Source: Sandaracinus amylolyticus
GTDB taxonomy: Bacteria; Myxococcota_A; Polyangia; Polyangiales; Sandaracinaceae
Assembly (NCBI RefSeq): GCF_021631985.1
Contig: NZ_CP070225.1
Location: forward strand, 744,001 to 808,000
DNA: 64,000 nucleotides
Direction: 5' to 3'
In this document: positions 3,001 to 40,225 of the stretch, piece by piece
How positions within the stretch are numbered: position 1 is the stretch's first letter
Layout: each line of letters starts with the position of its first letter
The notes under the pieces: generated by a model
The model's input: only the letters and a program-made list of their open reading frames with translations
What the model was told of the DNA's origin: nothing
Database searches by the model: none
Program-made: the position numbers and the translations under genes

Positions 3001-4673
3001 ATCGCCGCGAGGCGCCGATAGACCTCGGCCTTCTGCTGCGGCTCGAGCGTCGAGAGCGCCTCGCGCTCGAGCACCTGCACGAGATCGTCCCAGCGCTCCG
3101 TCGCTTCGAGCAGGCGCACCAGCGCCGCGCGCGCCTCGCGATCCGAGGGATCGAGGGCAGCGACGCCCTTCCACGCGCCGATCGCGCCCTCGGCGTCCTG
3201 GAGCCGACGCTCGCTGAGCGCCGCGACCTCGCGGAGCCGCTGGGTGCGCGCCTCGACCGAGAGCCCCGGCATGCGCGCCGCGCCGAGCAGGAGCTCGCGC
3301 AGCGGGGCCCACTCGCCGCGCTTGCGCAGGTGCTCCTCGACCAGCGCGAGCGCTTCCGCGTCCGAGGCATCGATCTCGAGGATCTGCCGCGCCGACGCGA
3401 CGGCGCCTTCTTCGTCGCCGCGCGCGCGCAGCGCGCCGACCATCTCGCGCAGGCGTGGGATGCGCTCGTTCGGCGGCAGGCCCTGCGACGCGACGGTGAG
3501 CGCGCGCAGCGCGTCCTCGTCGCGACCGGCGCGCCGGTAGAGCTCCACGAGCTGCGACGCGGCCTCCGCATCGCCCTCCTCGAGCAGCCACTCGAGGCAC
3601 GTGATCGCGTAGTCGACCTGGCCCGCGTCGAGATACGCCTTCGCGAGCCGGCGGCGACGCTCGCCCGCGCCCGGCGCTTCGGGCGCTCGCGCGAGGAACG
3701 CGACCCATCGTCGTGGCAGCAGATCGAAGTGCCCGACGCGCTCCGCGATGCGCTCCAGCAGCGCGAGCGCTCCGTCGTGATCGGGCGCTCCGTCGAGCGC
3801 GGTCTCGAGGTGCGTGACCGCGTCGGCCGGCGGCAGCTTCTGCGCGAGCTGGAAGAGCACGTCCGCCGCGCGACGGCGATCGGCGTCGGCGATCATCGCG
3901 TCGCCGCTCTGCTCGGCGCGCGTGAGGTACACGCGCGCGAGGTCCTGCATCACCTCGACGTCGCCCGGCGCCACGCCGAGCGCGCGCTTGAGCGCGACCA
4001 CCGCGCCCTCCAGGTCCGCGAGATCGTGGGCGCGGACGTGTGCGAGCTCGCGCAGCAGCGCGACCTTGCGCTCGGGATCGGGCTCGGCCTTCGACTCGAG
4101 CTCGCAGAGCGTCGCCGCGGCCTTGAGGTTGCCGGCCTGTCGATAGATCTCGCGCGCCGCGTAGATCGCGGGCACGAGCGTCGGATCGAGCTCGAACGCC
4201 TTGCGATAGTGGGTGATCGCCTTGTCGGCGCGCTTGAACGAGTGCTCCCAGACCTCACCGAGGCGGTGCTGCAGCGCCGCGACGTCGCGCGCGTCGCCAC
4301 CGACGTGCGCGAGGGCATCGGCGCGCCGCTCGAGCAGCTCCGCGAGCCGTCGATGATCCGCGGCCTCTTCGTAGATCGCGGTGAGCCGCAGCCCTGCGTC
4401 GGCGTGCGCCGCGTTGCGCTCGAGCGAGCGCTCGTAGAGACGCATGCTGCGCGCGCGGTCGCCGAGCGCGCCCCACGCGAGCTCGCCCGCTTCGAAGAAC
4501 GCCTGCGATGCGGCGCCGTGATCGGTGCTTCGTCCCGCCCATCCCTCGAGGAGGTTGGCGAGCGACGCGTAGTCGCCGATGCGCTGGTAGTGCGCCCGGA
4601 GCGCTGCGTACGCCGACGCATCGTCAGGGTTGCGGCGCAGGCGTGCGATGAGCTCCTCGGCCGTCGCGTCCAT
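1..4673 (-). CDS. Giant tetratricopeptide-repeat protein, C-terminus beyond the window
   Basis: The minus-strand frame is open for about 1557 codons from an ATG at 4671-4673 down to the window edge, so the C-terminus is missing. It starts MDATAEELIARLRRNPDD and consists almost wholly of TPR-type helical pairs. A repeating pattern of a Leu/Ala-rich helix, then D-P-x-x-x-x-A or similar, then A-x-x-x-Y/L-E-x-x-L recurs throughout. The last visible stretch, roughly the final 100 residues, turns acidic and Pro/Ser-rich, as in a linker. There is no signal peptide and no enzyme motif. Such proteins act as protein-interaction scaffolds; very long soluble TPR proteins are common in myxobacteria. It is transcribed divergently from pdxH with about 160 bp between. 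A plus-strand frame in the same codon register is also open over most of this gene and is a shadow of its GC-rich codons. The partner and role are unknown. Confidence 0.85.
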   Translation of the reverse strand, partial: MDATAEELIARLRRNPDDASAYAALRAHYQRIGDYASLANLLEGWAGRSTDHGAASQAFFEAGELAWGALGDRARSMRLYERSLERNAAHADAGLRLTAIYEEAADHRRLAELLERRADALAHVGGDARDVAALQHRLGEVWEHSFKRADKAITHYRKAFELDPTLVPAIYAAREIYRQAGNLKAAATLCELESKAEPDPERKVALLRELAHVRAHDLADLEGAVVALKRALGVAPGDVEVMQDLARVYLTRAEQSGDAMIADADRRRAADVLFQLAQKLPPADAVTHLETALDGAPDHDGALALLERIAERVGHFDLLPRRWVAFLARAPEAPGAGERRRRLAKAYLDAGQVDYAITCLEWLLEEGDAEAASQLVELYRRAGRDEDALRALTVASQGLPPNERIPRLREMVGALRARGDEEGAVASARQILEIDASDAEALALVEEHLRKRGEWAPLRELLLGAARMPGLSVEARTQRLREVAALSERRLQDAEGAIGAWKGVAALDPSDREARAALVRLLEATERWDDLVQVLEREALSTLEPQQKAEVYRRLAAIHRDRRGDLEEAMSALRNLRDLVPTDAAGRDALCDVLLAAGAFTEAIPMLKTRIEQADGAHRAALCRSLARVLEERMSDEEGAFSAWARVLEDEPGDPEALARMEAIDERAGNADRLLTTLSYRADVEDGPERAATYTRMGRIAAETLRDLAQAGEFYARAHELAPRDEAILDALCDVYDRSERFKDLVVLLRERARLEEDRAMRAALYRRIARTLRERVGNEAAAAEAYREVLDAGEDVEALSFLRDRARAQDDVAALDEALERLANIAEAPSDKRDLLLERAALLAERLDRPRDAIELSNVVVRTIDPTCLPALELLATWNDRIEDRHGVADALERTLQVLEDPGLRVPVAKRLSDLYEDELRDPARAIDALYAWADADLTEAEPLRRLIALLEPAERWKDLVIALDSLADLGDDPSAVSALVRRSAEIAFRRLGDVDGAWEKLAERAREGDSDAEAQLRELARAAGLAPRLVEHFVSIAESSDDAAIKRARWLDAARVQEELGDAGAALESTLKALAIDLDAVVRGDDRAVHDEVDRLAVKAAAWPRLAQVYETLIRRAEEKERKIELLLRHASLLDQEAEDPSGALDRALRACSLAPNDDEVLAVAEDLAPRAGRGDELLVVYDRRRGGAKDDASRIEALLRAVRLCEDGLEDREKALSYLAQAVALGVRSRELAPRIEEAARELDRERGKDAASGLLRGLVDVYAAIAEDMEADPKGGAALLLRASRLLESELDEPDGAWGALLRASTFAPSEPGPLDALESLGARNGRLPMLDQHLAKLVEDALDSKTAAALLRRRASVLEHLGRHGDAAEVLGNLKAVAPNDPEARVALRHALRRAARHQDLLLALDSDLVKARGDREQEIALRKEIALTWEHGLRNRWEALEAWQKVQKLAPDDADVAAALARIEGRSRDVLDDDSVEASALDVGLAETEQRDLATARAGEHTDPGIDAPPEPGLDQSDALEVPPSSALLPTDSVEATPEQLDEPGEQRPMS

Positions 4674-4833
4674 CTCTCTCGCGGGGCTCGCTGTCCAGGG
4701 TCGGGCGGGTGGGTAGAGCAGGCTACCATACGTCGTCTCCGTCTCGCGAATGCCTCTTCGTTTGGTCTTCGGCGCTCGTGAGCGAATGACCCTGGGCGGA
4801 TTCGCGAGGCGGGCGTACGTATCGCGCACGACG

Positions 4834-13077: not shown

Positions 13078-16000
13078 TCACATGTCGGGATCGGCGACGT
13101 TCGCCGCGCCGGGCGTGACCATCGCGGTCGTTGCCCAGTCCGTCGCCGCGTCGTTCGTGTCGCGTCCGTTCGGGATGCGGCTGATCGACGCGGTCGAGCC
13201 CACGTCCTGCGCGGTCGACGCGGTGCCCTCGACGAGGTTGTACGTGGTTCCGCTGATCGTCACCGCGGTGACCGGTCCCTCGTACGTGAGCGCGTCGAGC
13301 AGCTCGGTGCCGCGTAGGATCGCGATGCCGTCGTTCGGCCCGTTCTGCAGGTTGTCGGTCGCGGCCGTCCCAGGGAACGGCACGCGATCGACGCTGCTCG
13401 GGATCGTCACCGTGTCGCGCGCGATGACCAGGTACTCACCGGCGGCGAGCGAGCCGCTCAGCGCGACGCGGCCGTACTCGACCGGCCCGCTCATCGCCCC
13501 GCCGTTCACGAGCACGACGATCACGCCGGTGAGATCGAACGCGGTCGATCCCGGATTGTAGAGCTCGATGAACTCCACGTTGTCGCCCGCGCCGGGCATG
13601 TCGTAGTCGACCTCGTTGATCACGATCGTGCCGGCGCCGCCCGCGCTGACCTCGACGTCCGCAGTGCGCGTGACCGCGCCCATCGTCGCCGTGAGCGTCC
13701 CCTCGGCCGCGCTCGCGCCCGCGGTGAACGCGAACGTCGCCGTGGTCTCGCCCGCCGGCACGGTCACGCTCGGCGGCACCGTCCCGCCCGCGTCGACCGC
13801 GAGCGTGATCGTCGTACCGCCTGGAGGCGCGGGGATGTCGGTCGTCACCGTGAACGCCTGCATCTCTCCGACGCGCACGACCGCGGTGTCCGGCGTGAGC
13901 GTGAACGCGCCCGGCGCCTCGGTCGCGCCGAGCACGCGCACCTGCGCGGTGCGCGTCGTGCCGCCGAGCGTCGCGGTCACGGTTACCGGCGTGGGCGACG
14001 CCGCCGCGCCGGCCACGGGCACCTCGGCGCTCGCCGTGTTCGCCGGAATCGTGACGTCGGCGACGGTCAGGCCGCTGCCGGCGGTGATCGTCACGGTCGT
14101 CGCCGTCGGAACCGCTCGCGCGAGGCGGACCGTGAGCGGCGTCGGGAACGTCGCGGTCGGGCCCGCGCCCGCTTCGCGCACGTACGAGAGCGGAGGCCCG
14201 AGCTCGAGCAGCTGCGCCGTACCCGCGACGACGTCATCCGCGTTGCGCGGGTGCAGCTTGCTGTTCTCCCGGCGCCACGAGAGCACGCCGGTGATGGAGG
14301 TGAACGTCTCGCCCGCCGTCGCGAACGGCGTCAGGCGGAAGAAGAGGTCGTCGATGCGCAGGCCACCCGTCACCTCGAACTCGTAGGTCGGCGCGGTCTC
14401 TCCGCCCGCGGGCGCAGGCGCGACGTTGGTCACCGACACGTTCGTCACGCGCACGAGCACGCCCTCGAGCGCCTCGGCACGCGCGCCGCCGGTCGTGACG
14501 TCCGCGGGAGTGACATCGACCGGGGCGGGCACCGTGCCAGTGCCGGTCACCATCACGCTCGCAGCGGACGAGGAGATCTGCGTCTCGGCGAAGAACTCCT
14601 GGACCGTTCCGTCGATCGTGACCTCGTCGCCGATCGATTGCGTCGGCCCATCGCCGCCGACGAAGACGAACACGCCCGACTGGCCCTCGCCGTCGTAGTC
14701 CTCGTCGTCCTCCGCGACCTGCGCGTAGAAGCCGTTGCTCGCCACCGCCGTCACGACTCCGCGCACCACGACGCGCGTGTCGGCCGCGAACGTGCCGTCC
14801 TGCACCTCGTAGATCGTTCCGGGGCAGCCCGCGGCGCCGGGGTTCGCTCGCGTCGGGCACACGTCGCACGCGTCGCCCTTGCCGTCGTCGTCCATGTCCA
14901 TCTGATCGGGGTTCGACCGACCGGGGCAGTTGTCGGTCGTGTCGGGGACGTCGTCGCGATCTTGATCGTTCGGATCGAACGCCTCGCACGTCGTCGCGTC
15001 CGCCTCGAGCGGGCAGGGATCGCAGATGTCGCCCTCGCCGTCGTCGTCCGCGTCCGCCTGCGCGCCCATGTCGAGCGGGCGGATCGGGTTGAACATCGAC
15101 GGGCAGTTGTCCTCGGCGTTCGCGATCCCGTCGCCGTCGGAGTCGTCGGCCGTCGCGTTGCCGTCGTACTCGTTCGATCCGTCGATGCTCGGCATCGCGA
15201 CGACCGCGTCGGGGTACTCGGTACGGCGCGGATGGCAGCTCGGCTCGTCCGGGGGCGTCGCGCCGTCGCAGACGAAGAGCTGGTACTTGCGGTCGTTCGC
15301 CGCCTCGAGCGCTGCGAGGCTCATCCCGGTCTCGCGCATCACGCACGCGCGGCGCGGGCTGCCGCAGACGTCGATCGTGTCGCACGCATCGCCGGTGGGA
15401 AGCGCTGCGACGACGGCCGCCTCACCGTAGAGCACTTCTCCGCCACGCAGCACGAGCGCGACGTTCTCCGGCTGCGCGTCGATCACCGCGCGGTGCAGCG
15501 CGTTCACCGAGCCGTCGAAGATCACGAGGTCCGCGACGCGGCCCGGCGCGATCGACCCGAGCACGTCGTCGGTCGCGGTGGCGATCGCGCCGTTGAGCGT
15601 CGCCATGCGCCAGAGATCGAGATCGGAGAAGTAACCGTCCCAGTACTGCGCGTTGAGCTCGTCGGCGCACTGAAGCTCGCGGAGCATGTTCATCGAGCCG
15701 CTGTAGATCCAGTCGGTGCCCATCGCGATCGGCACGCCGAGACGGTCGTACTCGGGCGTGCGCGCAGTGTCGCCGTAGAGCGAGATGTTCGAGCGCGGCG
15801 ACCAGACGAGCATCGTGCCCTCTGCCGCGGCGTGCTCGATGTCGTTCGGCAGCAGGCCGATGCCGTGGATCATCGCGGTCTGCGGCTCGATGAGGTCGTT
15901 CGCGCCCTCCATGCGCATGCAGAGGAACTCGTTGCGCGCCTCGGCGTCGATGCCCTCGGAGACGTGCGGGGTGTACGCGTCCTCGCCGGCGATGCGCTCG

Positions 16001-16821
16001 GCGCTGTCTTCCCACGAGTAGCTACAGCCGCTCTCGCGCAGCGTTCCGCCGCTGTCGCCCAGGGGGAACGTCTGGTAGTAGGTCTCTGCCTGGCCGAGGC
16101 CTTCCATGTTGGCGCCTGCGCTGTCGAGGTTCCGCATGAGCCCCGAGCTGCCGCCCGATCCGTTCACCGCCGTCGCGCCGCCGATGATCATGCGGAGCTC
16201 GGCCCACTGCATCTCGGCCTGCGACGCGCGACCCGGCGGCCGGAAGTCGTCCGAGTGATCGCGCAGGCCGCGGCGCCAGTCGTGCCGGTGCTCGAAGCGC
16301 TCGTTGGTGCCGGCGAACGTCGGCTCCGTCGGAAGGCCCTGATACGTCATGTGCTCGTGCGCGTTGACGAGGCCGGGCGAGAGCACGCCGTCGGGGCACG
16401 AGACGCGCGTGGCGCCGCTCGCGCCTTCGGCGCTCGCGCAGTCGCAGTCGGCGCACACGATCGAGCCCGTCGCGTTGACGAGCACCTGGCCGCCCGCGAG
16501 CACGCGGCCGTCGGCCATCAGGACGTCGGCGGTGATCAGCAGGTTCGCGTCACCCGCGGTGGTCTCGCAGATCGCGCCGCCGGGCAGCGAAGGCGCGTCG
16601 GCGGCGGGGCACTCGACGATCATCACGTCGTCGCCGCCACCGCCGTCGGGCATGCCGCCGTCGGGCACCTGCGCATCGACGTCTGGGGTCTCGCCGTCGG
16701 GGCGCGGTCCGCCGTCGACGGTGCCGCCGTCGTCGTCGTCGCCGCAGCCGGTCGCGAGCATCGCGGGGACGAGAGAGATGGAGAGGAGAGCTGCGACCCG
16801 AAGCAGCCGTGCAACGTCCAT
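13078..16821 (-). CDS. Mosaic surface lipoprotein: amidohydrolase, thrombospondin type 3 repeats and lamin-tail domain
   Basis: A 1247-residue product from ATG 16821. The signal peptide ends in LATGC (C26), followed by an Asp/Gly-rich linker, so it is a lipoprotein. Residues about 75-510 form an ATZ/TRZ-type amidohydrolase: metal ligands H155-E-H157 in LVNAHEHM, a further His in TAMIHGIG, and the metal-binding Asp in AMGTDW (D370). Calcium-binding thrombospondin type 3 repeats follow (DSDGDGIANAEDNCP and two more, to about residue 690). Then come a TIYEVQDGTF module resembling OB-fold exodomains, a Calx/Ig-like region, and a lamin-tail domain (TIVINEVDYD, then NVEFIELYNPG) near residues 1060-1200. 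It probably sits on the cell surface and hydrolyses an amidine- or amide-type substrate, which I cannot identify. It is divergent from the RHS gene. Confidence 0.88.
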   Translation of the reverse strand: MDVARLLRVAALLSISLVPAMLATGCGDDDDGGTVDGGPRPDGETPDVDAQVPDGGMPDGGGGDDVMIVECPAADAPSLPGGAICETTAGDANLLITADVLMADGRVLAGGQVLVNATGSIVCADCDCASAEGASGATRVSCPDGVLSPGLVNAHEHMTYQGLPTEPTFAGTNERFEHRHDWRRGLRDHSDDFRPPGRASQAEMQWAELRMIIGGATAVNGSGGSSGLMRNLDSAGANMEGLGQAETYYQTFPLGDSGGTLRESGCSYSWEDSAERIAGEDAYTPHVSEGIDAEARNEFLCMRMEGANDLIEPQTAMIHGIGLLPNDIEHAAAEGTMLVWSPRSNISLYGDTARTPEYDRLGVPIAMGTDWIYSGSMNMLRELQCADELNAQYWDGYFSDLDLWRMATLNGAIATATDDVLGSIAPGRVADLVIFDGSVNALHRAVIDAQPENVALVLRGGEVLYGEAAVVAALPTGDACDTIDVCGSPRRACVMRETGMSLAALEAANDRKYQLFVCDGATPPDEPSCHPRRTEYPDAVVAMPSIDGSNEYDGNATADDSDGDGIANAEDNCPSMFNPIRPLDMGAQADADDDGEGDICDPCPLEADATTCEAFDPNDQDRDDVPDTTDNCPGRSNPDQMDMDDDGKGDACDVCPTRANPGAAGCPGTIYEVQDGTFAADTRVVVRGVVTAVASNGFYAQVAEDDEDYDGEGQSGVFVFVGGDGPTQSIGDEVTIDGTVQEFFAETQISSSAASVMVTGTGTVPAPVDVTPADVTTGGARAEALEGVLVRVTNVSVTNVAPAPAGGETAPTYEFEVTGGLRIDDLFFRLTPFATAGETFTSITGVLSWRRENSKLHPRNADDVVAGTAQLLELGPPLSYVREAGAGPTATFPTPLTVRLARAVPTATTVTITAGSGLTVADVTIPANTASAEVPVAGAAASPTPVTVTATLGGTTRTAQVRVLGATEAPGAFTLTPDTAVVRVGEMQAFTVTTDIPAPPGGTTITLAVDAGGTVPPSVTVPAGETTATFAFTAGASAAEGTLTATMGAVTRTADVEVSAGGAGTIVINEVDYDMPGAGDNVEFIELYNPGSTAFDLTGVIVVLVNGGAMSGPVEYGRVALSGSLAAGEYLVIARDTVTIPSSVDRVPFPGTAATDNLQNGPNDGIAILRGTELLDALTYEGPVTAVTISGTTYNLVEGTASTAQDVGSTASISRIPNGRDTNDAATDWATTAMVTPGAANVADPDM

Positions 16822-16998
16822 GAGGCTCCGTGGGGGATCGAAAAAAATGGAAGCCCCCACGATTCGAGACGCGTGTGATCCCGTCAAGCGCCTTCTGCTC
16901 ACCCGGCACAGGCTCGTCTCCCAGTCGTCGCCTGCGCGGCGGCGACCCCCACGTCGTCGCTGTTGACCTGCCTCCAGCCGGTGACGTAGGGTGCACAC
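16822..16998. promoter_or_regulatory. Divergent promoter region between two surface lipoprotein genes
   Basis: This 177-bp gap separates the divergent starts of the amidohydrolase lipoprotein (16821, minus) and the RHS lipoprotein (16999, plus), so it must carry promoters for both. It contains an AT-rich patch around 16837-16850 (gatcgaaaaaaatgg) close to the minus-strand start. I could not assign -35 and -10 boxes with confidence. Confidence 0.4.
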
Positions 16999-19900
16999 AT
17001 GCGCCTGCGCAATGCGTCCGCGATCCAACTCGCCCTGCTCGCCACCGCATGTTCTACGAGTCCAGTCGAAAACGCGTATCCCGGAGTCGGCCGGCGCGCC
17101 GAAGCGCTGACACTCCAGTGGGTTCGTGTTGATGACGATACGACCATCTACGAAGACGACTGGACGAACTACAGCGATGAAGCCTACCTCGAGGTCAATG
17201 ACCTCGGGTATCCACGTGCGATTTCGCTGCTGAACTGGGGTATCACTCGGAGCGGCTTCGAATCCCTGATTCCCCCCGGGGAAGAGATCCGCTCTGTGGT
17301 CCTCCGAGTGCCTGCGTCTCCCGGGTGCGATCCCAACGATCCTAGCGACACGCTCAATCTACACCCGGTCCAGGCTCCGTGGGATCCGGACGATGTCAAC
17401 TGGTCCTGCTCTGACGTTGATGACGTCTACGTGCAGCAGTGTGCGCGCGCCTGGTCGATCGACGAGGACCTCATCGAAACCCCGGTCATCGCGACCGCTC
17501 GGTGCGAAGCCTTCTCGCCCGCGGATAACTCGCCATGGTCGCATGAGTTCGACGGTTTCTCCTTCGACATCACCGCTCATACCGTTGCGTGGCTGGAAAA
17601 TGGGTACGGCCATGACGGGTGGAGCATTCAGGGCGGTACTCGCGAACTGCTTTCCGACGAGAATGGCACTCTGCTGGGAGCAGGCCCCTACGTAGAGATC
17701 GTGACCGCTCCCCCGGGCGCAGCACCCAATCTGTCTCCGCCGCCGCTGGACCCAGCGGTCGTCACGTCGGTATGGGCAGGCTACAAGTACCTCATCGACC
17801 AGGTCGGCCAATGGCCGACAAGCCCGAGTGCGTTTGATCCCGAGCGCGTCGGGGTCCTCCGCGGCCGCGTTGTTGCGCGTGCGGCGTCGTCGACGAGCAC
17901 TGCCAGCGCACTCCCCGGCGCGCGGGTCGAGATCCTCGGCCACCCCGAGTACGGACACACAGTCACTCGGGGTGATGGCTCGTACGAACTGATGGTGAAC
18001 GGCGGTGGTCCCGCGGTCGTGCACATCTCCCATACGGGCTACTTGCCAGCACAACGCCGGGTCGACGTGCCGTGGAACTCCCACGTCATGGTCGACGCCG
18101 TGTCGCTGGTCCCCGCTCCTGCAGCGACGAATGCTGCGTGCCCGCTTGTGCAGCCCGGCGCGACCGGGCAATTCGTGAGCGCGGTGTCCACCACCCCTGC
18201 GGGGCTCGACACCACTGTCGGCGGGATGACGTCGCGTGCGGGCGGACGCAACCTCCGAATCTACGTGCCAGGCGGGGTACAGCTGAGCGCCGGATCGGCG
18301 ACGAGCACGCGCTGGCGATTCTGCGGGGCGGAGTATTCAGTCGAGCCCAACGCGAGCGAGTGGACCGGCGCGAGTACGATGCCGGGCCAGTTGCCCGGGC
18401 CAACCGCGTACACGTTCGCCGCGAAGGTTCGCGCACACCTGGTGGATAGCGCCGGCAACATCGGCGACGAGGTGGAGCATCCGACGTTCACCGGAGACGG
18501 CGTCACGTTCTGGCTCGACAACTTCCTCGGATTCCCCGACGGCACGGAAATCCCTTACGGCTGGTACGACGAGCAACAAGGTCGCTGGGTTGCTGGCCCC
18601 GACGGTCGAGTCGTCGAGGTGACCCGCCTGTCGGCGGGATGCAGTTACTCGGACGCGTCGATCACGCAGGCCGAGCGAGATGCTGCGTGTGCAGACCTCA
18701 CGTCTGGGCTGAGCGTCGGGCAGTCGAGACGCTACTGGCGCGTTGCCGGTGCTCGCCATTTCTCGCCCATCGATCTGAACCTCGCGATCGCACTCCTGGA
18801 GCTCTTCCGGCCGGCTCTGGAGCGCGCCGCCGATCTCTACAACAGTGCTTGCGGAGTCGGCTCGACCATTCGCTGCGAAGAGCGCTCACTTGGCGAGTCC
18901 CTGCCGGTCACCGGGACGCCGTACTCGCTCACGTACTCGAGCGCGCGACAGCGCGGCCGCGCGGATGCGTTCTCGGTGACTGTTCGGCCGCTCGATAGGG
19001 CGGCGAGTGCGACCGCCGGACTGGCAGAGATTCGGGGTGAGATCCACGTCGCAGGGCGTCGTATCGGCGCCGATCGCCTGTTCCGGTCCTCGGTTCGGCC
19101 GAGCGACTGCAACGGTGTCACGAACTGCGAGATTCAGAACTTCTCTGATGCTGCCACCGCCGCGGCGTTGCGGCTCAACTGGCGCTGGGACGGCATGGAC
19201 GCTGTGGGCCGGCGCGTCCAGGGACCGCAGCGCGCGGTTGTCCGCGTGGCTTACACATATGACCTGGGGTACGCGATCCCCGATCCAGGCGCGCGTTCGT
19301 TCGGACGCAGTTCCGGCATCACGTCCGCCCAGATGGCGATCGGTCGCATGACCACCTTCCACGAGTTCGTGACGACTCTGGGAACGGTCGACGATGAGCT
19401 GGCGGGGATTGGCGGATGGAACCTCGACGTCCATCACGTGTTCGATCCGGCCACCAGTACCGTCTGGCTCGGAACGGGCGAACGAATCAACGCGCAAGCG
19501 GCCGGAAACGTGATCAGGACTCGCCTGGCCGCGCAGGCCTGGTCGGACGCACGATCCGTCGCTGTGGACGAGCGTGGAGACATCTACTACTCGGCCTTCG
19601 GCGGGGCCGATGGCGGCATCTGGGTTCGTCGGCGCGGTGAGGAGGTCAGTCAGCGACTCTGCCCGGGTGGCGATCCATACGGTATCGCGGTCGTCGCTTC
19701 CGTGTCCGGAGGGCCTCCGCGGGTCTATTTCGCGGACAAGCAGACGGCGTCGGTTCGTGTAATCCCGCCGAATTTTGTCGGCTCCTGCGCCTCCGCCCCC
19801 CTGGTTGTTGGCACCGGAGTAGCCGGAAGCGGGCTCGGGCCGACGACGAATCTGATCGATCTCGTGAATGAGTCACCCCAGACGTTCCCGATCTCGCAGG

Positions 19901-22900
19901 TCGAATCGATCGCCGCCGGACCGGACGGCTCGATCTACATCGCCGATCGTGCCGCGAGCCGCGTGCTCCGCTGGAGCAATGACGGGACTCCGGACGGAGT
20001 GGTTGAGCTCTTCGCTGGGCGGAGGAGCACCTCGTGCGTGAATGGCTCCGAGCCCACCTGCATCGCGATCGAAACTCCCCAAGCAGTCGCTGTCGGCGGG
20101 GATGGTTCGGTCTACGTTGCGGGCCGCATTCACCCGCGCGACGGCGCGAGTTCCGCTCAACGAATCATCCGCGTTCACCCGTCGGGGATCATCGAAGATC
20201 TCCTGGGCGGCGCAACGGCGGATGGAAGTCGGGGGGACGGGCTGTCCGGTTCTGCGGCGTCCCTCGGTGACATCACCGGGCTCGCGATCGCGCGCGATGG
20301 AACTCTTGTCTTCGGCGAAGTCGCTGCGGGGCCCAGCCCTACTGTCGCATGGGACTGCGGCGAACCGACGCAGTCAAACTGCAGCCGGATCCGCTACATC
20401 GCGCCGAACGGGCAAGCGTTCACGATGGGTGGGATTCGCGCGAAAGGGCTGCTCACCACGTTCCCGAACACGGCGCAGGGCACCGCCGCAACGGCCACCC
20501 AGATTGCAACGCTTCGCGGCCTCGGCGCTGGCCCTGACGGTCGAGTGTACTTCGTCGACGGTGTGCGCGAAGAGGTTCGGGTCATTGAGCCGACGTTCCC
20601 CGGAGGGTTCACGACCGATCACGTCGTGCCGTCTCCGGACGGCAGCGTGCAGTGGATGTTCGACACGGAGGGGCGCCACCTCTCCACGCGCGACGCGATT
20701 TCGGGCCGCTCGCTCGTCGCGTTCGGGTACCGCCCGGATGGCCGCCTGAGTCAGGTGGTAGATCCCGACAGCACGAACACGATCTCGTGGCCCGCGAGTC
20801 TACCCGGCACTGTGACCATCACGGCACCGGGAACGCTGGAAACCCGGCTCCTGCTCGGCGCAAACGGTTACGTGGACCGGGTGGACTACCCGCACGCGAC
20901 GGCGAGCGGCACCCATACCGATACGTACGAAATCGCTCATGACGCCGGTGGCCTGCTTCGCGAGATCGTGGATCCGGCGCGAGGCGCAGGTGCGCCTGAG
21001 GTCCACTCGTTCTGCTACGACTCCGTCGGTCGACTCACGCGCGACGGGATCGGCACGCAAGCGGGTGACACTGCGTGTGACGCGCCCGGCGCATCCGTGC
21101 AGACCCTGGGTTCCGGCCTCGCTCCGACGCCCGGCTCGGCGGCAGTCGTCCTGACGAACGCAGACGCCCTGAGCACCGTTCTCGTTTCGCGTCAGGTTGG
21201 GGACGTGCTTCATCGAGAGGTCCGCAGGCCCTCTGGCGCGCGCCTGGAGATCAATGCTCCCGCGGATGGAGCGGATCTCACTGCGGTCGCTTGCGACTCC
21301 GGACTCGCATACTCGGAATCGTGTTTCGATTGCGCCGCCAGAGCTGACGCGGCGAGCTGCGCTGCTGGAACCGCCTGCACGTGGACGGGGTCCGCGTGCG
21401 TGTCGTCGTTCGAGAGAATGCGCTCGGTGACGGCGTTCGCAAACGATCCCCGGCCCTCGCTGGGAGGGCTGCGCTATCCATCACAGTCAACGCTCACCTG
21501 GTTCGATCCGCTTTCGTCGGCGTGGACGACAGTGGAGGCAACCGAAACTCGTACGCTCGGAGCCTCCGGAGCTCCGTGCAACGGTAGCGCCTCGTGTCTC
21601 CAAACGGCCCAGCGCGTCGTCGGCTCCGGGACGGCAGCGACCGTGCTGGAGCAAACGGGCACGACATGGCGAATTACCGAGCTCGCGCCGAGCGTGCCGC
21701 TGACCACGACGCGAACCGTGGCCCATCCGGAGTTGCGCGTACGCCGCACTCTGCTCGATTCGGCGGGGCGCCCCACGCGGGTCGAGAATCCCGGCGAGCA
21801 CCCCGTATGCATCAGCTACACCGGCGACCGTGTCTCGGCCGTCGTGCAAGCGGCCAACTGCATTGTGTCCGGCTCCTATCGCCGCGTCGCTTACGGGTAC
21901 GGCGGACCGTCGAGTCGTTTCCTCGCGTCCGTAACCGAAGGAACGACGGTCACGAGCTACGCGCGTGACCAGCGCGGATGGATCGAGAATATCACCCTGC
22001 CTGGCACCGCCACCGGAAGCTCCGCTCCGCGCGTCGTGCAGCTGACCTACGACGCCGAGGGCAACACGACGGGCGTCTTGACACCCACCGCCCGGCAACA
22101 CGGGTACACGTACGGAATCCTCGATTCCGTAGCGACCTACTCGCCGCCGGCGACCGCAGCGTGGTCGCTCACGCCTGCCTATGATGTCGACTACACGAAC
22201 GCGGGGACGCCTGACCTCTACACGCTTCGGAGCGCAACGGGACCCGCAACTGACGTCCTGGATCCGCAGTACGATGCCAGCACGGGGGCTCTGGCAAGCA
22301 TCGCGGATAGTGTGGGCGCGACGCTGTACGAAGTCGACGAGGACTACGCAGGGCGAGTCATCGTGAGCGACGATCTCACGCGAGTCCGACTGGCCCGCAC
22401 CTTCGCAGGCCCGTTCCTTCGTCGGGAGGAGTGGACGCGTGATGTTTCCGGACGAGTCGACCACCTCTTCGACAATCGCGGGTTGCTCATCGCGGAGAGT
22501 GCGAGTGTCGATCTCGGCGCCTCCCAGCAGACGTACTCCGAATCGAGCTGTTACAACACCGACCGCGAGCTCCAGACGCTGGTTCTCGACGGCGCGGGCG
22601 TTGGAGAGTCGTTCGCGATCGCTTACGCTGGTGGCACTGCGCCGAGCGCAACCCTCACGACGCGAGTGGGGCCTCTGACGACGGGCTGTGGCACGGTCTC
22701 CGGCGCTCACGTCCTGGTCTCGACGACCGCGAACTCTTTCGGCGAGCTCGCGAGCCGCTCCGCGTCGTTCGTCTCCGGTGGATCATCGTCGTTCTATACT
22801 CTGACGATCCCGGAGACTGTTGGCTCAAGCGCGGGCCGCGACCTCAACGGGCGTATCCGTTTCCGCGAGGAGAAGCTCGGAGCCCAGACTACCTGCGATG

Positions 22901-24774
22901 CGTACGTCTACGACTCCGCAGCGCACCTGTCGTCCTGGACGCGAACCAGTGGGCTCTGCGGAACCGTAGGCGCGCCCGTTCTGGGAACTGCGACCTACGG
23001 TTACGACGCGAATGGCAACCTGTCCGCGTCGACGATCGATTGGGACGGTGCCGGCACGTCCTACGCGAGCCAGACCACGAACTATTCGCTGACCGAACAA
23101 GATCAGCCCCGCAACGGACGCGTTCCGGGGGCAACGTCTACGACGGCGCGGAGCTATGACGCCGCCGGCAGGCTGGAAACCCGCGGATCCAACGCGGACC
23201 CGCTGATGCGGGAACGGTTCGTCTACGACAGCTTCGACCGGCTCGTGCGATGGTGCCCGACGGGTGCCTGCGGGACGACTGCGAGCAATCGAGTCGACCT
23301 GAGCTACGACGGCGTCGGTCGCTTGGTTCGGATTTACGAAGCGTCCGCGAACATCGAACAGCGCTTCTACTATCGCGACGGTCTCGCGCCGATCGCGTGG
23401 CAGCAAATCGCAAGCAGCGTTCGTCGCACGGTCGTCTTCGGCTACGGTAGCTACGACTGGGTGCCCGACGTCATGTACGTCGACACCACGACGAACGGCG
23501 GCGTGGACGAGACCTATCGGATCGTGCACGACGAGCGCGGGTCGGTGCGGGCGATCGTTCGTGCCGCGGGTACGGGCACGATCGGAGCCCTGGTCCAGCG
23601 GTTCAGCTATGACCCGTGGGGCAATCGACGCGCCGCAGAGGAGGGAACGGCGCCACCCGCGACGGCGACGTCCACGCAGCCGTTCGGGTTCGCAGGCGCC
23701 ATCGCGCTTCCCATTCCTGGGATTTGGCACATGGGTGCCCGCCAGTACGACTCGACGGTCGGGGCGTTCACGACGCGCGATCCGATCGAGTTCGGCGGCG
23801 GGGTGAGCCACTACGCATACGTCGCCGGCGATCCGGTCAACGCCGTCGATCCGGGTGGCCTCAATCCCGCGATTCTTTCGCAGATCGGGTGTCTCGGATC
23901 GCTCGCTGTGAATGGTGGCAGCCCCGCCGAGGTTGCGTTCAATATCGTCGTCGGCGCGGTTCTGGAGGGGCTCGCGGCATTCCGTGCTCTCGGTCGCGCC
24001 GCACCCGGTGCGGGAGCACTCGATGACGCCTGTCGTGGGGGAATGTGCGAGGTACCGGGCCGATGCTTCGCCGCAGGCACTCCCGTCGAGACGTCTGAAG
24101 GACTCCGCGGTATCGAGGACGTCGAGGTCGGTGACCTGGTCTGGTCGCTGGATCCTGACACCGGCGAGAGTGGATATCGCGAAGTGACTCGAACGTTCGA
24201 GCGCATCGAAGATGTCGTGCTTGAACTCTCGATCGTGGCGGACAACGCGTCTGAGAGTATTACGACGACTCGGTCGCATCCGTTCTACGTCGCAAATCGC
24301 GGCTGGGTGAGGGCAGAAGAGCTCCGCACGGGGGACGAGGTCTTCACGAGCCGCGGGGGCTGGGCGCGGATCGCGTCTGGGACTTGGATCGAGGCTAGTC
24401 AACTTGTCTACAACCTTGAGGTTGAAGGCAGTCACTCCTATTTCGTCGGACAGGCTGGAGTCTGGGCGCACAACTCTTGTGTCCAGGCCAACAAGGCTGC
24501 CGGAGACGCGTTCCGCGACCAGGTCGCTGATGGCTTCCGACAAATGGGCTACGACGTGCAAACGGAAGTTACGGTCGTGACCCCGTTCGGCGTGCGTAGG
24601 TACGATGTCGCGATCTCGTCTGGTGGAACGCTTCGCGGCCTGATCGAAACGAAGGTGGGGCGGTCGCCGTACCTCCCCAGCCAGCGCGCGAAGGACGCGT
24701 GGGTTGCCAGCGGTCCCCGTTGGGGGAGATATGCGAACGTTCCGCGTGTTCCAACTACCATCGTGCGCCCATGA
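16999..24774 (+). CDS. RHS polymorphic toxin with lipoprotein-like N-terminus, NHL repeats, Hint domain and nuclease tip
   Basis: A 2591-residue product. Modules in order: a signal peptide with lipobox-like LATAC (C18); a DNRLRE-like beta domain (about 38-235); a carboxypeptidase regulatory-like fold (284-370); NHL-type propeller repeats such as AAGPDGSIYIADR (850-1190); a short Cys-rich PSI-like patch (1432-1474); YD/RHS repeats (1215-2260); the RHS core end RDPIEFGGGVSHYAYVAGDP (D2261 onward); a pretoxin Hint domain from C2356 (CFAAGTPVET) to H2491-N2492; and a 99-residue tip. The RHS barrel normally encases a toxin that is released by cleavage. Here the tip has D2536-x13-E2550-T-K2552, a PD-(D/E)xK nuclease pattern. 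The next gene overlaps by 4 bp (ATGA) and is its likely antidote. Third codon positions hold visibly more A/T than in neighbouring genes, which suggests transfer. Toxicity is inferred. Confidence 0.9.
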   Translation: MRLRNASAIQLALLATACSTSPVENAYPGVGRRAEALTLQWVRVDDDTTIYEDDWTNYSDEAYLEVNDLGYPRAISLLNWGITRSGFESLIPPGEEIRSVVLRVPASPGCDPNDPSDTLNLHPVQAPWDPDDVNWSCSDVDDVYVQQCARAWSIDEDLIETPVIATARCEAFSPADNSPWSHEFDGFSFDITAHTVAWLENGYGHDGWSIQGGTRELLSDENGTLLGAGPYVEIVTAPPGAAPNLSPPPLDPAVVTSVWAGYKYLIDQVGQWPTSPSAFDPERVGVLRGRVVARAASSTSTASALPGARVEILGHPEYGHTVTRGDGSYELMVNGGGPAVVHISHTGYLPAQRRVDVPWNSHVMVDAVSLVPAPAATNAACPLVQPGATGQFVSAVSTTPAGLDTTVGGMTSRAGGRNLRIYVPGGVQLSAGSATSTRWRFCGAEYSVEPNASEWTGASTMPGQLPGPTAYTFAAKVRAHLVDSAGNIGDEVEHPTFTGDGVTFWLDNFLGFPDGTEIPYGWYDEQQGRWVAGPDGRVVEVTRLSAGCSYSDASITQAERDAACADLTSGLSVGQSRRYWRVAGARHFSPIDLNLAIALLELFRPALERAADLYNSACGVGSTIRCEERSLGESLPVTGTPYSLTYSSARQRGRADAFSVTVRPLDRAASATAGLAEIRGEIHVAGRRIGADRLFRSSVRPSDCNGVTNCEIQNFSDAATAAALRLNWRWDGMDAVGRRVQGPQRAVVRVAYTYDLGYAIPDPGARSFGRSSGITSAQMAIGRMTTFHEFVTTLGTVDDELAGIGGWNLDVHHVFDPATSTVWLGTGERINAQAAGNVIRTRLAAQAWSDARSVAVDERGDIYYSAFGGADGGIWVRRRGEEVSQRLCPGGDPYGIAVVASVSGGPPRVYFADKQTASVRVIPPNFVGSCASAPLVVGTGVAGSGLGPTTNLIDLVNESPQTFPISQVESIAAGPDGSIYIADRAASRVLRWSNDGTPDGVVELFAGRRSTSCVNGSEPTCIAIETPQAVAVGGDGSVYVAGRIHPRDGASSAQRIIRVHPSGIIEDLLGGATADGSRGDGLSGSAASLGDITGLAIARDGTLVFGEVAAGPSPTVAWDCGEPTQSNCSRIRYIAPNGQAFTMGGIRAKGLLTTFPNTAQGTAATATQIATLRGLGAGPDGRVYFVDGVREEVRVIEPTFPGGFTTDHVVPSPDGSVQWMFDTEGRHLSTRDAISGRSLVAFGYRPDGRLSQVVDPDSTNTISWPASLPGTVTITAPGTLETRLLLGANGYVDRVDYPHATASGTHTDTYEIAHDAGGLLREIVDPARGAGAPEVHSFCYDSVGRLTRDGIGTQAGDTACDAPGASVQTLGSGLAPTPGSAAVVLTNADALSTVLVSRQVGDVLHREVRRPSGARLEINAPADGADLTAVACDSGLAYSESCFDCAARADAASCAAGTACTWTGSACVSSFERMRSVTAFANDPRPSLGGLRYPSQSTLTWFDPLSSAWTTVEATETRTLGASGAPCNGSASCLQTAQRVVGSGTAATVLEQTGTTWRITELAPSVPLTTTRTVAHPELRVRRTLLDSAGRPTRVENPGEHPVCISYTGDRVSAVVQAANCIVSGSYRRVAYGYGGPSSRFLASVTEGTTVTSYARDQRGWIENITLPGTATGSSAPRVVQLTYDAEGNTTGVLTPTARQHGYTYGILDSVATYSPPATAAWSLTPAYDVDYTNAGTPDLYTLRSATGPATDVLDPQYDASTGALASIADSVGATLYEVDEDYAGRVIVSDDLTRVRLARTFAGPFLRREEWTRDVSGRVDHLFDNRGLLIAESASVDLGASQQTYSESSCYNTDRELQTLVLDGAGVGESFAIAYAGGTAPSATLTTRVGPLTTGCGTVSGAHVLVSTTANSFGELASRSASFVSGGSSSFYTLTIPETVGSSAGRDLNGRIRFREEKLGAQTTCDAYVYDSAAHLSSWTRTSGLCGTVGAPVLGTATYGYDANGNLSASTIDWDGAGTSYASQTTNYSLTEQDQPRNGRVPGATSTTARSYDAAGRLETRGSNADPLMRERFVYDSFDRLVRWCPTGACGTTASNRVDLSYDGVGRLVRIYEASANIEQRFYYRDGLAPIAWQQIASSVRRTVVFGYGSYDWVPDVMYVDTTTNGGVDETYRIVHDERGSVRAIVRAAGTGTIGALVQRFSYDPWGNRRAAEEGTAPPATATSTQPFGFAGAIALPIPGIWHMGARQYDSTVGAFTTRDPIEFGGGVSHYAYVAGDPVNAVDPGGLNPAILSQIGCLGSLAVNGGSPAEVAFNIVVGAVLEGLAAFRALGRAAPGAGALDDACRGGMCEVPGRCFAAGTPVETSEGLRGIEDVEVGDLVWSLDPDTGESGYREVTRTFERIEDVVLELSIVADNASESITTTRSHPFYVANRGWVRAEELRTGDEVFTSRGGWARIASGTWIEASQLVYNLEVEGSHSYFVGQAGVWAHNSCVQANKAAGDAFRDQVADGFRQMGYDVQTEVTVVTPFGVRRYDVAISSGGTLRGLIETKVGRSPYLPSQRAKDAWVASGPRWGRYANVPRVPTTIVRP
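24064..24771 (+). other. Hint autoprotease plus C-terminal nuclease tip within the RHS protein
   Basis: Sub-region of the RHS gene. The Hint module runs from Cys (24064-24066), with the penultimate His-Asn at 24469-24474; block-B-like TTTRSHPFY and the closing VYNLEVEGSHSYFV are both present, so it looks cleavage-competent. The tip (24475-24771, 99 residues) reads helix, GYDVQTEVTVV, RRYDVAIS, GLIETKVG, helix. Asp at 24604, Glu at 24646 and Lys at 24652 give the PD-(D/E)xK triad spacing. Confidence 0.75.
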
Positions 24775-25349
24775 CTGATCGCCAGCACTTCGCTACGTCA
24801 GCCGACGCAATGAAGTACCTCGACGCGCGGCTACGCAGCGTCGTACGGAGTCTCGGTTACAAGCGCGCACGCGGCACGAAGCTGGCCTACGCAAAACCCA
24901 GCGGTCGCGATGACGAGTTCGTGGTGTTCGGTGCGGTGGCTTCGCGGGTCGGCTACGACCATTTCGCTGGCGGACTGTTCCGTGTCGAGCTTGGGCTCGC
25001 ACCCGTGCCTGAGCTCTTCGCTGCCGCGCGTGTCGGGTTGGTCGACTTGCTTTCCGAGTCCGACCTGGAGCGGTACGTCGGTATCTCGCGAGCCGTCGTC
25101 GCTGCGCTCCCGCGTCCGCCGGATGTACACGTCGAGCAGTTCGCAAGCACGGCTCGAGACTGGTACGCGAAGAGGTTCGAGCCGCCCGCGCGTGGCTTGC
25201 GCCGCACCTTCTACGAGTGGGCGCCGTTTCGTAGCAGCGACGACCTCGACGCATGGTCCGCGTTCCTTGCCGAGTCGCTTCCGTCTGGTCTTGATCGCGT
25301 CGCGCGCTCCAGCGTCGATGCTGGGAACCTGCGGCTAGCGCCCGGCTAG
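24771..25349 (+). CDS. Probable immunity protein for the RHS nuclease
   Basis: A 192-residue soluble product from ATG 24771, whose ATG shares bases with the RHS stop (ATGA), so the two are translated in a coupled way. It starts MTDRQHFATSADAMKYLDA, has no signal peptide and is alpha/beta with a late Trp/Phe-rich helix region (FYEWAPF, DAWSAFL). Its first half (RSVVRSLGYKRARGTKLAY, then FRVELGLAP) loosely recalls DUF4304-type proteins, some of which occur as immunity genes, but I am not sure of that match. Position directly after a polymorphic toxin tip is the main argument: immunity genes nearly always lie there. It would act in the cytosol by binding the nuclease. Base composition resembles the RHS gene. 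Its stop overlaps the stop of the next, convergent gene. Confidence 0.75.
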   Translation: MTDRQHFATSADAMKYLDARLRSVVRSLGYKRARGTKLAYAKPSGRDDEFVVFGAVASRVGYDHFAGGLFRVELGLAPVPELFAAARVGLVDLLSESDLERYVGISRAVVAALPRPPDVHVEQFASTARDWYAKRFEPPARGLRRTFYEWAPFRSSDDLDAWSAFLAESLPSGLDRVARSSVDAGNLRLAPG

Positions 25350-38800: not shown

Positions 38801-40225
38801 TCACGGGCACTCGGGGCGCGTGAGCGCGGCGCCGAGCGCTTCGATCATCCCGTCGAACTGGCCCGCGAAGCTGTTCTGGCAGATCGAGCCGACCACCGCG
38901 CCCGCGCCGCGCGCGTCGAGCCCTCGCGCGACCTCCACGATGCGTCGCGGCGCGAACGACACACCGGCCCCCGGCACGTTGCACGAAGGACGCAGTCGTG
39001 TGGGCATCGACGGGTCGACGATCTCCTGCATGTCGGGATGCTCGAGGATCGCGTCGAAGTCGGGGTGCGCGGGATCGGTCGCTGCGTCGACCGGGATGCC
39101 CGCGAGCACACCGAACACCAGCCGGCTGGGATCACGTCGTAGCCCGAGGAGCCCGGCGCGTCCGTCTTCACCCGCGACGTAGCGCTCGATGCGATGGGGC
39201 ACGTCCGGAAAGGCGAAGCAGCGCAGGCTGAGATCCGCGCTCGAGAAGCGCTCGTCCGAGGGATCGAAGATCCCGGGATCGGGCGTCGAGCAGTCCTCTT
39301 CGTCGGTGACGACGAGCACGCCCAGCACCGAGCCCTCGCGCAGGAACCCCGCGTTCACGCCATCGCCGTGCCCGCGCGTACCGCCCAGGAAGATCGGCGG
39401 TGTGTAGCCCTCGCGTGCCGTCGACGGAGAGATCGCCTTCAGCGCGGCCTCGAGCGGCTGCTCGAAGCCACATCCCCCGGTGCCTACCGTCGCGACACAC
39501 GCGAGCTCCATCGCGAAGTCGGCGACGTCTTCGCCCGCGCGGTACTGGAAGATCGCCGGGTAGCTCGGCATGCATCCCAGGATCGACGTGCGCCCGGCCG
39601 TGATCATGACCCCGTCGTCGCCGAGCTCGGCGCCGAAGAGGCCGCCGTCGCAGGTCGGGACGAGGTTTCCGCCGACGCCCATGTCGGTCGTGACCACCGC
39701 GACGTGCAGCGAGGTCACGGGATCGAAGTCACGGGTTCCGTCGCCGTCGCGATCGCCGGTCGAGAGCGCCTGCACGAAGCGAGGGAGCTCCTCGGTCAGG
39801 CTCGCCTGCTCCTCGCCCATCGATCCCGAGTCGTCGATCACGAAGAGCAGATCGAGCTCGTCGGTGTCGCTCGCTCCCGAGCCGTCGCAGACGCAGGTCG
39901 CGTCTTCGCAGGTGAGCCCGGTGCCGCAGAGCTCGTCACCGGCACCGTCGATCCGACCGTCGCAGTCGTCGTCGAGCCCGTTGCAGCGCTCGGCGCGCGG
40001 CACGCACGTGCAGACCTCCGCGGTGCTCGCGCACGACCAGCCCGGTGTGCACTCCGCGTCGAGCTCGCACGAGGTCGTGCAGCGACCGGCGCAGATCTCC
40101 GTCGCGCACTCCGATGGGTCGTCGCACGGCGTGCCGACGGGCGCGCCTTCGTGCACGCGGCTCTCGGCGCACGCGGCGAGCACGGCCGCGACGAGCATCA
40201 TCGAGCCCCGCGTCGCAATCCTCAT
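38801..40225 (-). CDS. Lipoprotein with Cys-rich/MopE-like repeats and a von Willebrand A domain
   Basis: A 474-residue product with signal peptide and lipobox-like LAAC (C19). Residues about 30-115 are Cys-rich, including CNGLDDDCDGRID, the MopE-type motif, which in methanotrophs is linked to copper-binding surface proteins. A von Willebrand A domain follows with an intact MIDAS DDSGSMG, a VVTTDMG strand and VVTDEEDC, for metal-dependent protein adhesion. It is likely anchored on the outer membrane and binds another surface protein. It lies just upstream of the multicopper oxidase and sigma factor on the same strand and may share their transcript. This architecture is common in myxobacteria, so the copper link is only suggestive. 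Confidence 0.85.
   Translation of the reverse strand: MRIATRGSMMLVAAVLAACAESRVHEGAPVGTPCDDPSECATEICAGRCTTSCELDAECTPGWSCASTAEVCTCVPRAERCNGLDDDCDGRIDGAGDELCGTGLTCEDATCVCDGSGASDTDELDLLFVIDDSGSMGEEQASLTEELPRFVQALSTGDRDGDGTRDFDPVTSLHVAVVTTDMGVGGNLVPTCDGGLFGAELGDDGVMITAGRTSILGCMPSYPAIFQYRAGEDVADFAMELACVATVGTGGCGFEQPLEAALKAISPSTAREGYTPPIFLGGTRGHGDGVNAGFLREGSVLGVLVVTDEEDCSTPDPGIFDPSDERFSSADLSLRCFAFPDVPHRIERYVAGEDGRAGLLGLRRDPSRLVFGVLAGIPVDAATDPAHPDFDAILEHPDMQEIVDPSMPTRLRPSCNVPGAGVSFAPRRIVEVARGLDARGAGAVVGSICQNSFAGQFDGMIEALGAALTRPECP

What the first reader, a model, noticed from the sequence alone, without database searches (positions are those of the whole stretch)
16999..25349. RHS-Hint toxin with a short PD-(D/E)xK-like tip and an ATGA-overlapping candidate immunity gene
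The RHS core ends at DPIEF, a complete-looking Hint module follows (C2356 to H2491-N2492), then only 99 residues carrying D2536-x13-E2550-x-K2552. The next gene's ATG lies inside the RHS stop. Polymorphic toxin loci show exactly this order. Whether this tip and its antidote belong to a known family is unclear, so it could be a new toxin-immunity pair. Seen: the modules, motif and overlap. Inferred: toxicity and immunity.
Basis: partly seen in the sequence, partly recalled or inferred. Interest (0 to 1): 0.85.

Follow-up and report, generated by a model that had tools for sequence, protein, structure and literature searches.

The report
Teneurin-like toxin with Hint-released nuclease tip
A bacterium carries a giant, probably exported protein related to animal teneurins that appears to hold a small nucleic-acid-cutting toxin behind a self-cleaving release module, with a probable antidote gene directly behind it.

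Summary
The trunk is more than a generic RHS protein: its best solved match is the bacterial teneurin-like protein (TLP) BiTLP (9PT5, E 4.7e-85), including the FN-plug self-cleavage site. After the shell come a complete pretoxin Hint (78.7 bits, cut-off 27.7) and a 99-residue tip without a Pfam or NCBIfam family. The tip is predicted to have the PD-(D/E)xK nuclease fold, and D2536, E2550 and K2552 are invariant in 5 of 5 tips. The four other tips sit on other RHS proteins with no Hint seen, so the tip is an exchangeable cassette.

The overlapping 192-aa gene has no Pfam hit, but its four-member family is a remote relative of DUF4304 (hhalign 38.0; best of 200 shuffles 18.7). True DUF4304 genes overlap the RHS stop behind two of the four other tips. 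That supports immunity. Against it: its own family stands apart from toxins, as I read the frames, in the three other genomes found, both proteins are basic, and nothing has been tested.

Verdict: a new member of a known kind. Toxicity and immunity remain inferred.

The parts
16999..17052 (+). Residues 1-18: signal peptide ending in a lipobox-like LLATAC (C18), probable lipoprotein export
   Evidence: read from the sequence; no predictor run
17833..18105 (+). Teneurin TTR-like domain, residues 279-369
   Evidence: PF25020 E 1e-18, 67.5 bits, cut-off 27
18106..19524 (+). TIP plus FN-plug region, residues about 370-842; G621-S622 (codons 18859-18864) and C618 fall on BiTLP G723|S724 (cut site) and C719
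   Evidence: phmmer alignment to 9PT5, residues 246-842 on 360-930, i-Evalue 8.7e-50; site from PMC13018210
19525..20598 (+). NHL propeller, residues about 843-1200 (limits approximate)
   Evidence: 9PT5 alignment 970-1354 on 1067-1400, i-Evalue 1.3e-20; PF25021 20 bits, under its cut-off 27.1
20599..23862 (+). YD/RHS shell, residues about 1201-2288, ending in the core D2261 ... P2279-xxxx-D2284-P-G-G-L2288; predicted self-cleavage after L2288
   Evidence: TIGR03696 62.4 bits at 2204-2288; RHS_repeat; weak 9PT5 alignment 1938-2289 on 1828-2145, i-Evalue 1.1e-5; searched alone, residues 1733-2296 match T6SS-type Rhs proteins and not 9PT5
24064..24474 (+). Pretoxin Hint domain C2356 to H2491-N2492, with TxxH motif T2424-H2427
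   Evidence: PF07591 E 6.3e-22, 2363-2493; solved intein-like domain 2LWY aligned over 2355-2492, E 4.5e-16; residues
24475..24771 (+). Toxin tip, residues 2493-2591, PD-(D/E)xK-like nuclease domain
   Evidence: AF2 model pLDDT 71.4; fold matches; four homologues
24604..24654 (+). Predicted active site D2536-x13-E2550-x-K2552
   Evidence: invariant in 5 of 5 tips
24771..25349 (+). Candidate immunity gene, 192 aa, ATGA-coupled to the toxin gene; remote relative of DUF4304

Best explanation
The gene encodes a bacterial teneurin-like polymorphic toxin. Steps: (1) lipoprotein export places the protein on the cell surface (inferred from signal and class). (2) The YD shell cuts its own C-terminus after L2288 and the FN-plug cuts at G621|S622, leaving Hint plus tip enclosed (inferred by homology; both cuts were reported for BiTLP, not shown here). 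(3) The Hint domain cleaves after N2492 and frees the 10.8 kDa tip (inferred; the Hint residues are present). (4) The tip, a PD-(D/E)xK nuclease, cuts nucleic acid in the recipient cell using D2536, E2550 and K2552 (fold and conservation shown by computation, activity inferred). (5) The translationally coupled 192-aa protein, a distant DUF4304 relative, binds the tip in the producer and its kin (inferred).
For: Trunk: 9PT5/9IFO at E 4.7e-85 and 3.6e-84. Of five 9PT5 stretches printed, three pass 1e-3 and lie in the same order in both proteins: 246-842, 970-1354, 1938-2289. TTR_TEN1-4 67.5 bits. Hint 78.7 bits. Tip: homologues in a Microvirga plasmid, an Acidobacteria MAG and two genomes from the phylum-level search centred on that MAG's genome; D, E and K invariant 5 of 5. 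The AF2 model is helix, three strands, helix. Foldseek best hit AF1548 at E 1.1e-3, probability 1.00; VIA-align Z 8.8 AF1548, 7.9 Hjc resolvase, 7.7 VRR_NUC. Single tips weakly hit VRR_NUC (0.0021) and MTES_1575 (best 0.0065) in Pfam, and one hits a phage Holliday junction resolvase family at 5.3e-5. Neighbour: 2 of 4 other tip loci have a DUF4304 gene overlapping the RHS stop (L014; L027). In genome G377 the search found one DUF4304 gene, the one behind the tip (a lower bound, see Tried and rejected). The neighbour's own family matches DUF4304 at hhalign score 38.0, against at most 18.7 in 200 column shuffles. Exchange: a second teneurin-like protein in the same genome is 51% identical over the matched part (18-233) of a 233-aa shell-core query but has another C-terminus.
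Against: No toxicity, nuclease or immunity test exists. The neighbour's relatives in three other genomes are not beside a toxin as I read the frames (no family search was run there). Of four other tip loci, one has only an unrelated ~100-aa gene (L026) and one has an IS6 transposase next (L013). Tip (pI 10.1) and neighbour (pI 9.3) are both basic, unusual for a nuclease/immunity pair (general knowledge). The neighbour's model is poor (pLDDT 55.6) and finds no fold. The tip rests on five sequences; its five AF2 models average 59.2 to 71.4 pLDDT; no Foldseek match passes 1e-3, and by the tool's own note Z under 8 may be a common arrangement. Single tips also touch unrelated Pfam families at similar strength, such as HK97-gp10_like at 0.0071. 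The DUF4304 link covers only 53 columns at probability 70%. The end of the shell, searched alone, matches T6SS-type Rhs proteins and not BiTLP.
Confidence: 0.75

Rival explanations
1. The tip is a nuclease toxin, but the 192-aa neighbour is not its antidote: it is an unrelated or solitary gene that lies downstream by chance, and protection comes from elsewhere, for example from keeping the toxin exported and enclosed.
For: The family's three other members lie apart from toxins as I read the frames; both proteins are basic; none of the four other tips has this exact family beside it.
Against: ATGA coupling; remote DUF4304 relation, with DUF4304 behind two other tips; [quoted passage not shown]
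Confidence: 0.17
2. Same architecture, but the tip cuts RNA (for instance tRNA) rather than DNA, like some PD-(D/E)xK CdiA toxins.
For: The CdiA-CT/CdiI structure 4G6V is among the Foldseek matches (rank 29, E 0.20); tRNA-splicing endonucleases also match. That 4G6V cuts tRNA is recalled.
Against: The best matches are mostly known as DNA-acting (Hjc, VRR_NUC, FAN1; their substrates partly recalled). [quoted passage not shown]
Confidence: 0.3
3. The protein serves adhesion or kin signalling, as teneurins do in animals, and the tip is a remnant.
For: PMC13018210 leaves open a role in cell-to-cell communication for TLPs.
Against: An intact Hint, conserved D/E/K and a coupled neighbour gene speak for a working toxin module.
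Confidence: 0.07

Closest known systems
Bacterial teneurin-like proteins (BiTLP, PDB 9PT5/9IFO; PMC13018210)
   Same: TTR, TIP/FN-plug, NHL and a YD/RHS shell, DPxG motif, FN-plug cut site, lipobox-like signal, variable C-terminus, gene directly downstream
   Different: C-terminal part is 303 aa (32.3 kDa) with Hint plus nuclease-like tip, against a reported average near 15 kDa; in the sections read, the paper lists HINT toxins and nucleases as separate C-terminal kinds. The end of the shell is closer to T6SS-type Rhs proteins by sequence
Tox-REase polymorphic toxins (Zhang 2012, PMC3482391, passages read)
   Same: PD-(D/E)xK core, RHS carriers, HINT listed with several clades, Imm54 (signature GF, Q) beside Tox-REase-4, -7, -9 and -10
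   Different: None of the five tips hits a Tox-REase model in Pfam (that Pfam holds such models is recalled); clades without a model could not be tested
DUF4304 (PF14137)
   Same: N-terminal part aligns (53 columns, probability 70%); same position behind two related tips
   Different: No hmmscan hit for the neighbour; C-terminal half not aligned
Pretoxin Hint (PF07591) and bacterial intein-like domain 2LWY
   Same: Near full-length match, C1, TxxH and HN present
   Different: None seen; cleavage not tested

Membership tests
Bacterial teneurin-like protein | FN-plug followed by NHL in one frame | tested here: met
   9PT5 alignments 246-842 on 360-930 and 970-1354 on 1067-1400
Bacterial teneurin-like protein | YD shell of the teneurin kind after the NHL | tested here: inconclusive
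   RHS core 62.4 bits and a weak 9PT5 stretch 1938-2289, 1.1e-5; TEN_YD-shell only 11.1 bits against 50; residues 1733-2296 alone match T6SS-type Rhs proteins, not 9PT5. The paralogue L030 has TEN_YD-shell at 48.3 bits, just under 50
Bacterial teneurin-like protein | Hits at E 1e-10 to the authors' own three HMMs | not testable with these tools
   Those HMMs are not held; criterion read in PMC13018210 section 12
Bacterial teneurin-like protein | TTR domain and TIP insertion before the FN-plug | tested here: met
   PF25020 67.5 bits; region between TTR and FN-plug aligns with BiTLP
Bacterial teneurin-like protein | PxxxxDPxG core motif with a second Asp about 24 residues before | tested here: met
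   D2261 and P2279-xxxx-D2284-P-G-G, 23 apart
Bacterial teneurin-like protein | Sec/SPII lipoprotein signal (Gram-negative members) | tested here: inconclusive
   Lipobox-like LLATAC18 read by eye; no predictor run
Pretoxin Hint PF07591 | Score over Pfam cut-off; catalytic Cys, TxxH, C-terminal HN | tested here: met
   78.7 bits against 27.7; C2356, H2427, H2491-N2492
PD-(D/E)xK superfamily | Core helix, three strands, helix with D and ExK at the core strands | tested here: met
   In the predicted model only, pLDDT 71.4; fold matches; D/E/K invariant 5 of 5
PD-(D/E)xK superfamily | Nuclease activity | not testable with these tools
   needs an assay
Tox-REase clades held in Pfam | hmmscan hit over cut-off | tested here: not met
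   0 of 5 tips list any Tox-REase model up to E 10 (HMMER's filters drop most matches above about 0.1)
Tox-REase-4 | Clade alignment (D, ExK; with HINT, RHS, Imm54) | not testable with these tools
   Only its table row was seen; no model known to be held
DUF4304 PF14137 | hmmscan hit over 23.2 bits | tested here: not met
   No hit for the neighbour up to E 5; only a remote profile match
Imm54 (Zhang 2012) | Conserved GF and Q | not testable with these tools
   Signature read; whether it equals DUF4304 is unknown to me

The most novel reading that the evidence does not exclude
A teneurin-like shell that locks its cargo twice: the shell cuts the C-terminus free but keeps it enclosed, and a Hint domain inside the shell makes the last cut only on release. 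The tip may stay tethered by a disulfide between C618 of the FN-plug and C2494, its only cysteine, as BiTLP C719-C2216 does. If so, C-termini recorded as HINT toxins in other TLPs would be release modules in front of small hidden toxins, and the release mechanism that the 2026 paper leaves open becomes testable.
Probability: 0.3. Interest if true: 0.65.

Novelty: new member of a known kind. Interest (0 to 1): 0.5.

Why it matters
It adds a nuclease-like family with no Pfam or NCBIfam match and a probable antidote to the small, recently described class of bacterial teneurin-like toxins, the relatives of animal teneurins. Its Hint-plus-nuclease end suggests that 'HINT toxin' and 'nuclease' endings may be one design: a release module followed by a small toxin. 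Delivery and release of these toxins is stated as open in PMC13018210, and here three predicted cut sites can be named and tested.

Tried and rejected
Weak tip hits in G032 and G365 were dropped. The G365 match contains stops. The G032 match lies inside a long frame that reads like part of a transporter operon (my reading, no family search run), and neither reappeared with the three-row profile. G618 (E 9.2e-4, partial) was not examined. G263 has two near-identical distant tips at contig ends; these are not counted among the five. The genome searches score only some of each genome's first-look candidates (at most 13, 17, 10), so relatives can have been missed. Viral contigs gave nothing for the tip or the neighbour, phages nothing for the Microvirga tip, and plasmids nothing for the neighbour and no further tip. 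The fold search with the neighbour model gave only noise (best Foldseek E 2.1; best Z 4.4), so no fold is claimed. PADLOC gave no hits for six proteins. Profile searches of solved structures gave no relative for the tip (8 chance matches, best E 0.14) and none for the neighbour. In VIA-align I recognise no polymorphic-toxin structure in the 50 rows shown; that excludes nothing. The absence of DUF4304 in 56 genomes of the order is not used as evidence, because the same first look missed the DUF4304 gene P0012 in G496. A first GC3 value for the Hint was out of frame and is replaced.
Full report
Observation. The next gene starts at 24771 inside the stop codon and encodes 192 residues. Its relative P0007 begins at the same column, which supports this start. 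The window lies in a 10.96 Mb genome, at G000:C1:744001-808000; no call names the organism.

The trunk. Pfam finds a teneurin TTR-like domain (67.5 bits, cut-off 27), RHS repeats and a teneurin NHL match under its cut-off. NCBIfam finds the RHS core at 2204-2288. Against solved structures the best matches are 9PT5 and 9IFO, the bacterial teneurin-like protein BiTLP, at E 4.7e-85 and 3.6e-84. Of five 9PT5 stretches printed, three pass 1e-3 and run in the same order: 246-842 on 360-930, 970-1354 on 1067-1400, 1938-2289 on 1828-2145. A fourth is an alternative register of the NHL repeats and the fifth is not significant. The YD-shell stretch is weak (1.1e-5). A search with residues 1733-2296 alone gave six matches, Rhs proteins such as 7Q97 and Tse5 (3.3e-7, 3.5e-6), and not BiTLP. 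So the front is clearly teneurin-like, and the end of the shell is more like ordinary Rhs. In the 9PT5 alignment, C618 and G621-S622 fall on BiTLP C719 and the G723|S724 cut site, as I read it. The source paper (PMC13018210; I read the abstract, two of three parts of Results, the Discussion, the HMM methods and passages) describes TLPs as polymorphic toxins, with the highest share of species in Myxococcota. It reports lipoprotein signals in Gram-negative members, two self-cuts in BiTLP, a variable enclosed C-terminus and, for almost all, a gene directly downstream; in one tested case that protein bound and neutralised the toxin. The window protein fits this description in front, plug, propeller, core motif and gene order. 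The C-terminal part after L2288 is 303 aa, 32.3 kDa, twice the reported average. At about 1.21 cubic angstrom per dalton (recalled) that is near 39,000 cubic angstrom, just under the 44,000 reported for the BiTLP cavity; this is only an estimate.

Hint. PF07591 matches 2363-2493 at 78.7 bits, and the solved intein-like domain 2LWY matches 2355-2492. C2356, a TxxH motif ending at H2427, and H2491-N2492 are present. Zhang 2012 (PMC3482391; passages and section 22 read) places Hint just before toxin domains as a processing peptidase.

Tip. Residues 2493-2591 have no Pfam or NCBIfam family (best E 0.14 and 0.073). Searches for relatives: the own genome gave only itself. In 377 genomes of the phylum the three-row profile matched 2 (the window's own genome, and G263 with distant tips). 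In the phylum-level search centred on G377 it matched 4 of 297 (G377, G496 and G634 strongly; G618 weakly). Plasmids gave 1 of 72,556 records. The single genome-contig scan gave 2 loci, one of them the same plasmid. Five tips were aligned; D2536, E2550 and K2552 are invariant in 5 of 5. The carriers differ: Pfam at E 0.01 shows no teneurin and no Hint domain in the RHS stretches of L013, L014 and L027 (the L013 stretch is cut and the L014 contig is short), and the L026 frame, only 381 residues, shows no Hint by eye. The AF2 model (five sequences, best model pLDDT 71.4, pTM 0.59) is helix 2-22, strands 26-35, 38-48 and 51-56, and helix 67-78, with D on the second strand and ExK just after the third. 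Foldseek has no match under 1e-3; the best is AF1548 at 1.1e-3 with probability 1.00. Most of the 50 rows shown, of 397, are named nucleases or proteins that I recall as members of this superfamily; a few are not. VIA-align gives Z 8.8 (rmsd 4.0, 89 aligned) for AF1548, 7.9 for Hjc and 7.7 for a VRR_NUC domain. Single members touch VRR_NUC, MTES_1575 and a phage resolvase family by sequence, but also unrelated families at similar strength in Pfam. I take the fold as likely and the activity as inferred.

Neighbour. P0001 hits nothing in Pfam, NCBIfam or PADLOC and only a chance-level PHROG (E 0.12). Relatives were found in 3 other genomes: G304 (1 of 376 others in the phylum search), and G838, G841 and again G304 (3 of 316 others in the class search). 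As I read their frames, they lie next to a pseudouridine synthase-like gene, a transposase-like gene and another transposase-like gene, and none beside an RHS gene in the stretch fetched. Behind the other tips the picture is: L014, a DUF4304 gene with ATGA overlap (Pfam 3.2e-13), then a ~100-aa gene; L027, a DUF4304 gene (3.2e-9) from GTG in the overlap TAGTG, then a relative of the same ~100-aa gene; L026, only the ~100-aa gene; L013, an IS6 transposase. In G377 the search found one DUF4304 gene, the one behind the tip. The four-member family of P0001 (A9) against six DUF4304 proteins (A8) gave hhalign score 38.0, probability 70%, pairwise E 4e-5 over 53 columns. The highest of 200 column-shuffled controls was 18.7 and the reversed alignment scored 10.8. 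The earlier two-member version gave 23% and, against an unrelated alignment, 0.1%. So P0001 is probably a divergent relative of the likely antidotes beside related tips. It does not pass Pfam's own test for DUF4304, and I do not file it there.

Exchange. A second teneurin-like protein in the same genome (L030, about G000:C1:6565318-6572496) is 51% identical over the matched part (18-233) of a 233-aa shell-core query and carries another C-terminus. It was the only other match at E 1e-10 in 12 genomes searched. The TLP gene has GC3 0.71-0.81 in 200-codon steps, and the neighbour has 0.75. Of ten long ORFs of the window compared, not verified as genes, eight have 0.84-0.93; the others are 153-4781 at 0.82 and 39194-40615 at 0.66, the latter overlapping another of the ten on the other strand.

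Mechanism and confidence. Shown by computation: the module order, family matches, fold prediction, residue conservation, remote DUF4304 relation and tip exchange. Inferred: export, the three cuts, release, nuclease action, immunity. The substrate is open. Literature: two searches for DUF4304 found no paper; a search joining Sandaracinus (my guess at the genus, from no call) with RHS found none; searches joining teneurin with Hint, polymorphic toxin, nuclease or immunity led to PMC13018210 as the paper on bacterial TLPs. The library holds open-licence papers only.

Noticed in passing
L014:3961-4269, L027:6901-7212, L026:7981-8283: A ~100-aa protein family follows three of the four other tip loci; one member weakly hits TIGR03066 (9.2e-5), and a plasmid relative lies beside an Imm8 gene in NZ_CP006994.1. 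It may be a second antidote.
   Followed up: partly
L030:5319-12497 (G000:C1, about 6565318-6572496, - strand): Second teneurin-like protein of the same genome with a glycine-rich C-terminus that differs by eye from the window's Hint and tip.
   Followed up: partly
L031, L032, L033, L034, L035: Five further RHS-like proteins of the same genome, each with its own C-terminus; L031 has an HEAGH motif like a metallopeptidase, and L034 has an AELK motif that may be another nuclease (my reading).
   Followed up: no
window residues C618 (18850-18852) and C2494 (24478-24480): C618 aligns with BiTLP C719, which is disulfide-bonded to the BiTLP toxin; C2494 is the only cysteine of the tip. A tether is possible.
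   Followed up: no
L024 and L025 (G263): Two near-identical distant tips with the same D...ExK...Q pattern at contig ends, each followed by a ~130-aa frame that may be another antidote family.
   Followed up: partly
L045:10583-11080 (G841): Relative of the neighbour that seems to lack its start, beside a transposase-like gene and several small frames, perhaps a collection of antidote genes (my reading).
   Followed up: no
window 13078-17028, - strand: Divergent upstream frame whose N-terminal part reads like a lipoprotein amidohydrolase; not examined.
   Followed up: no
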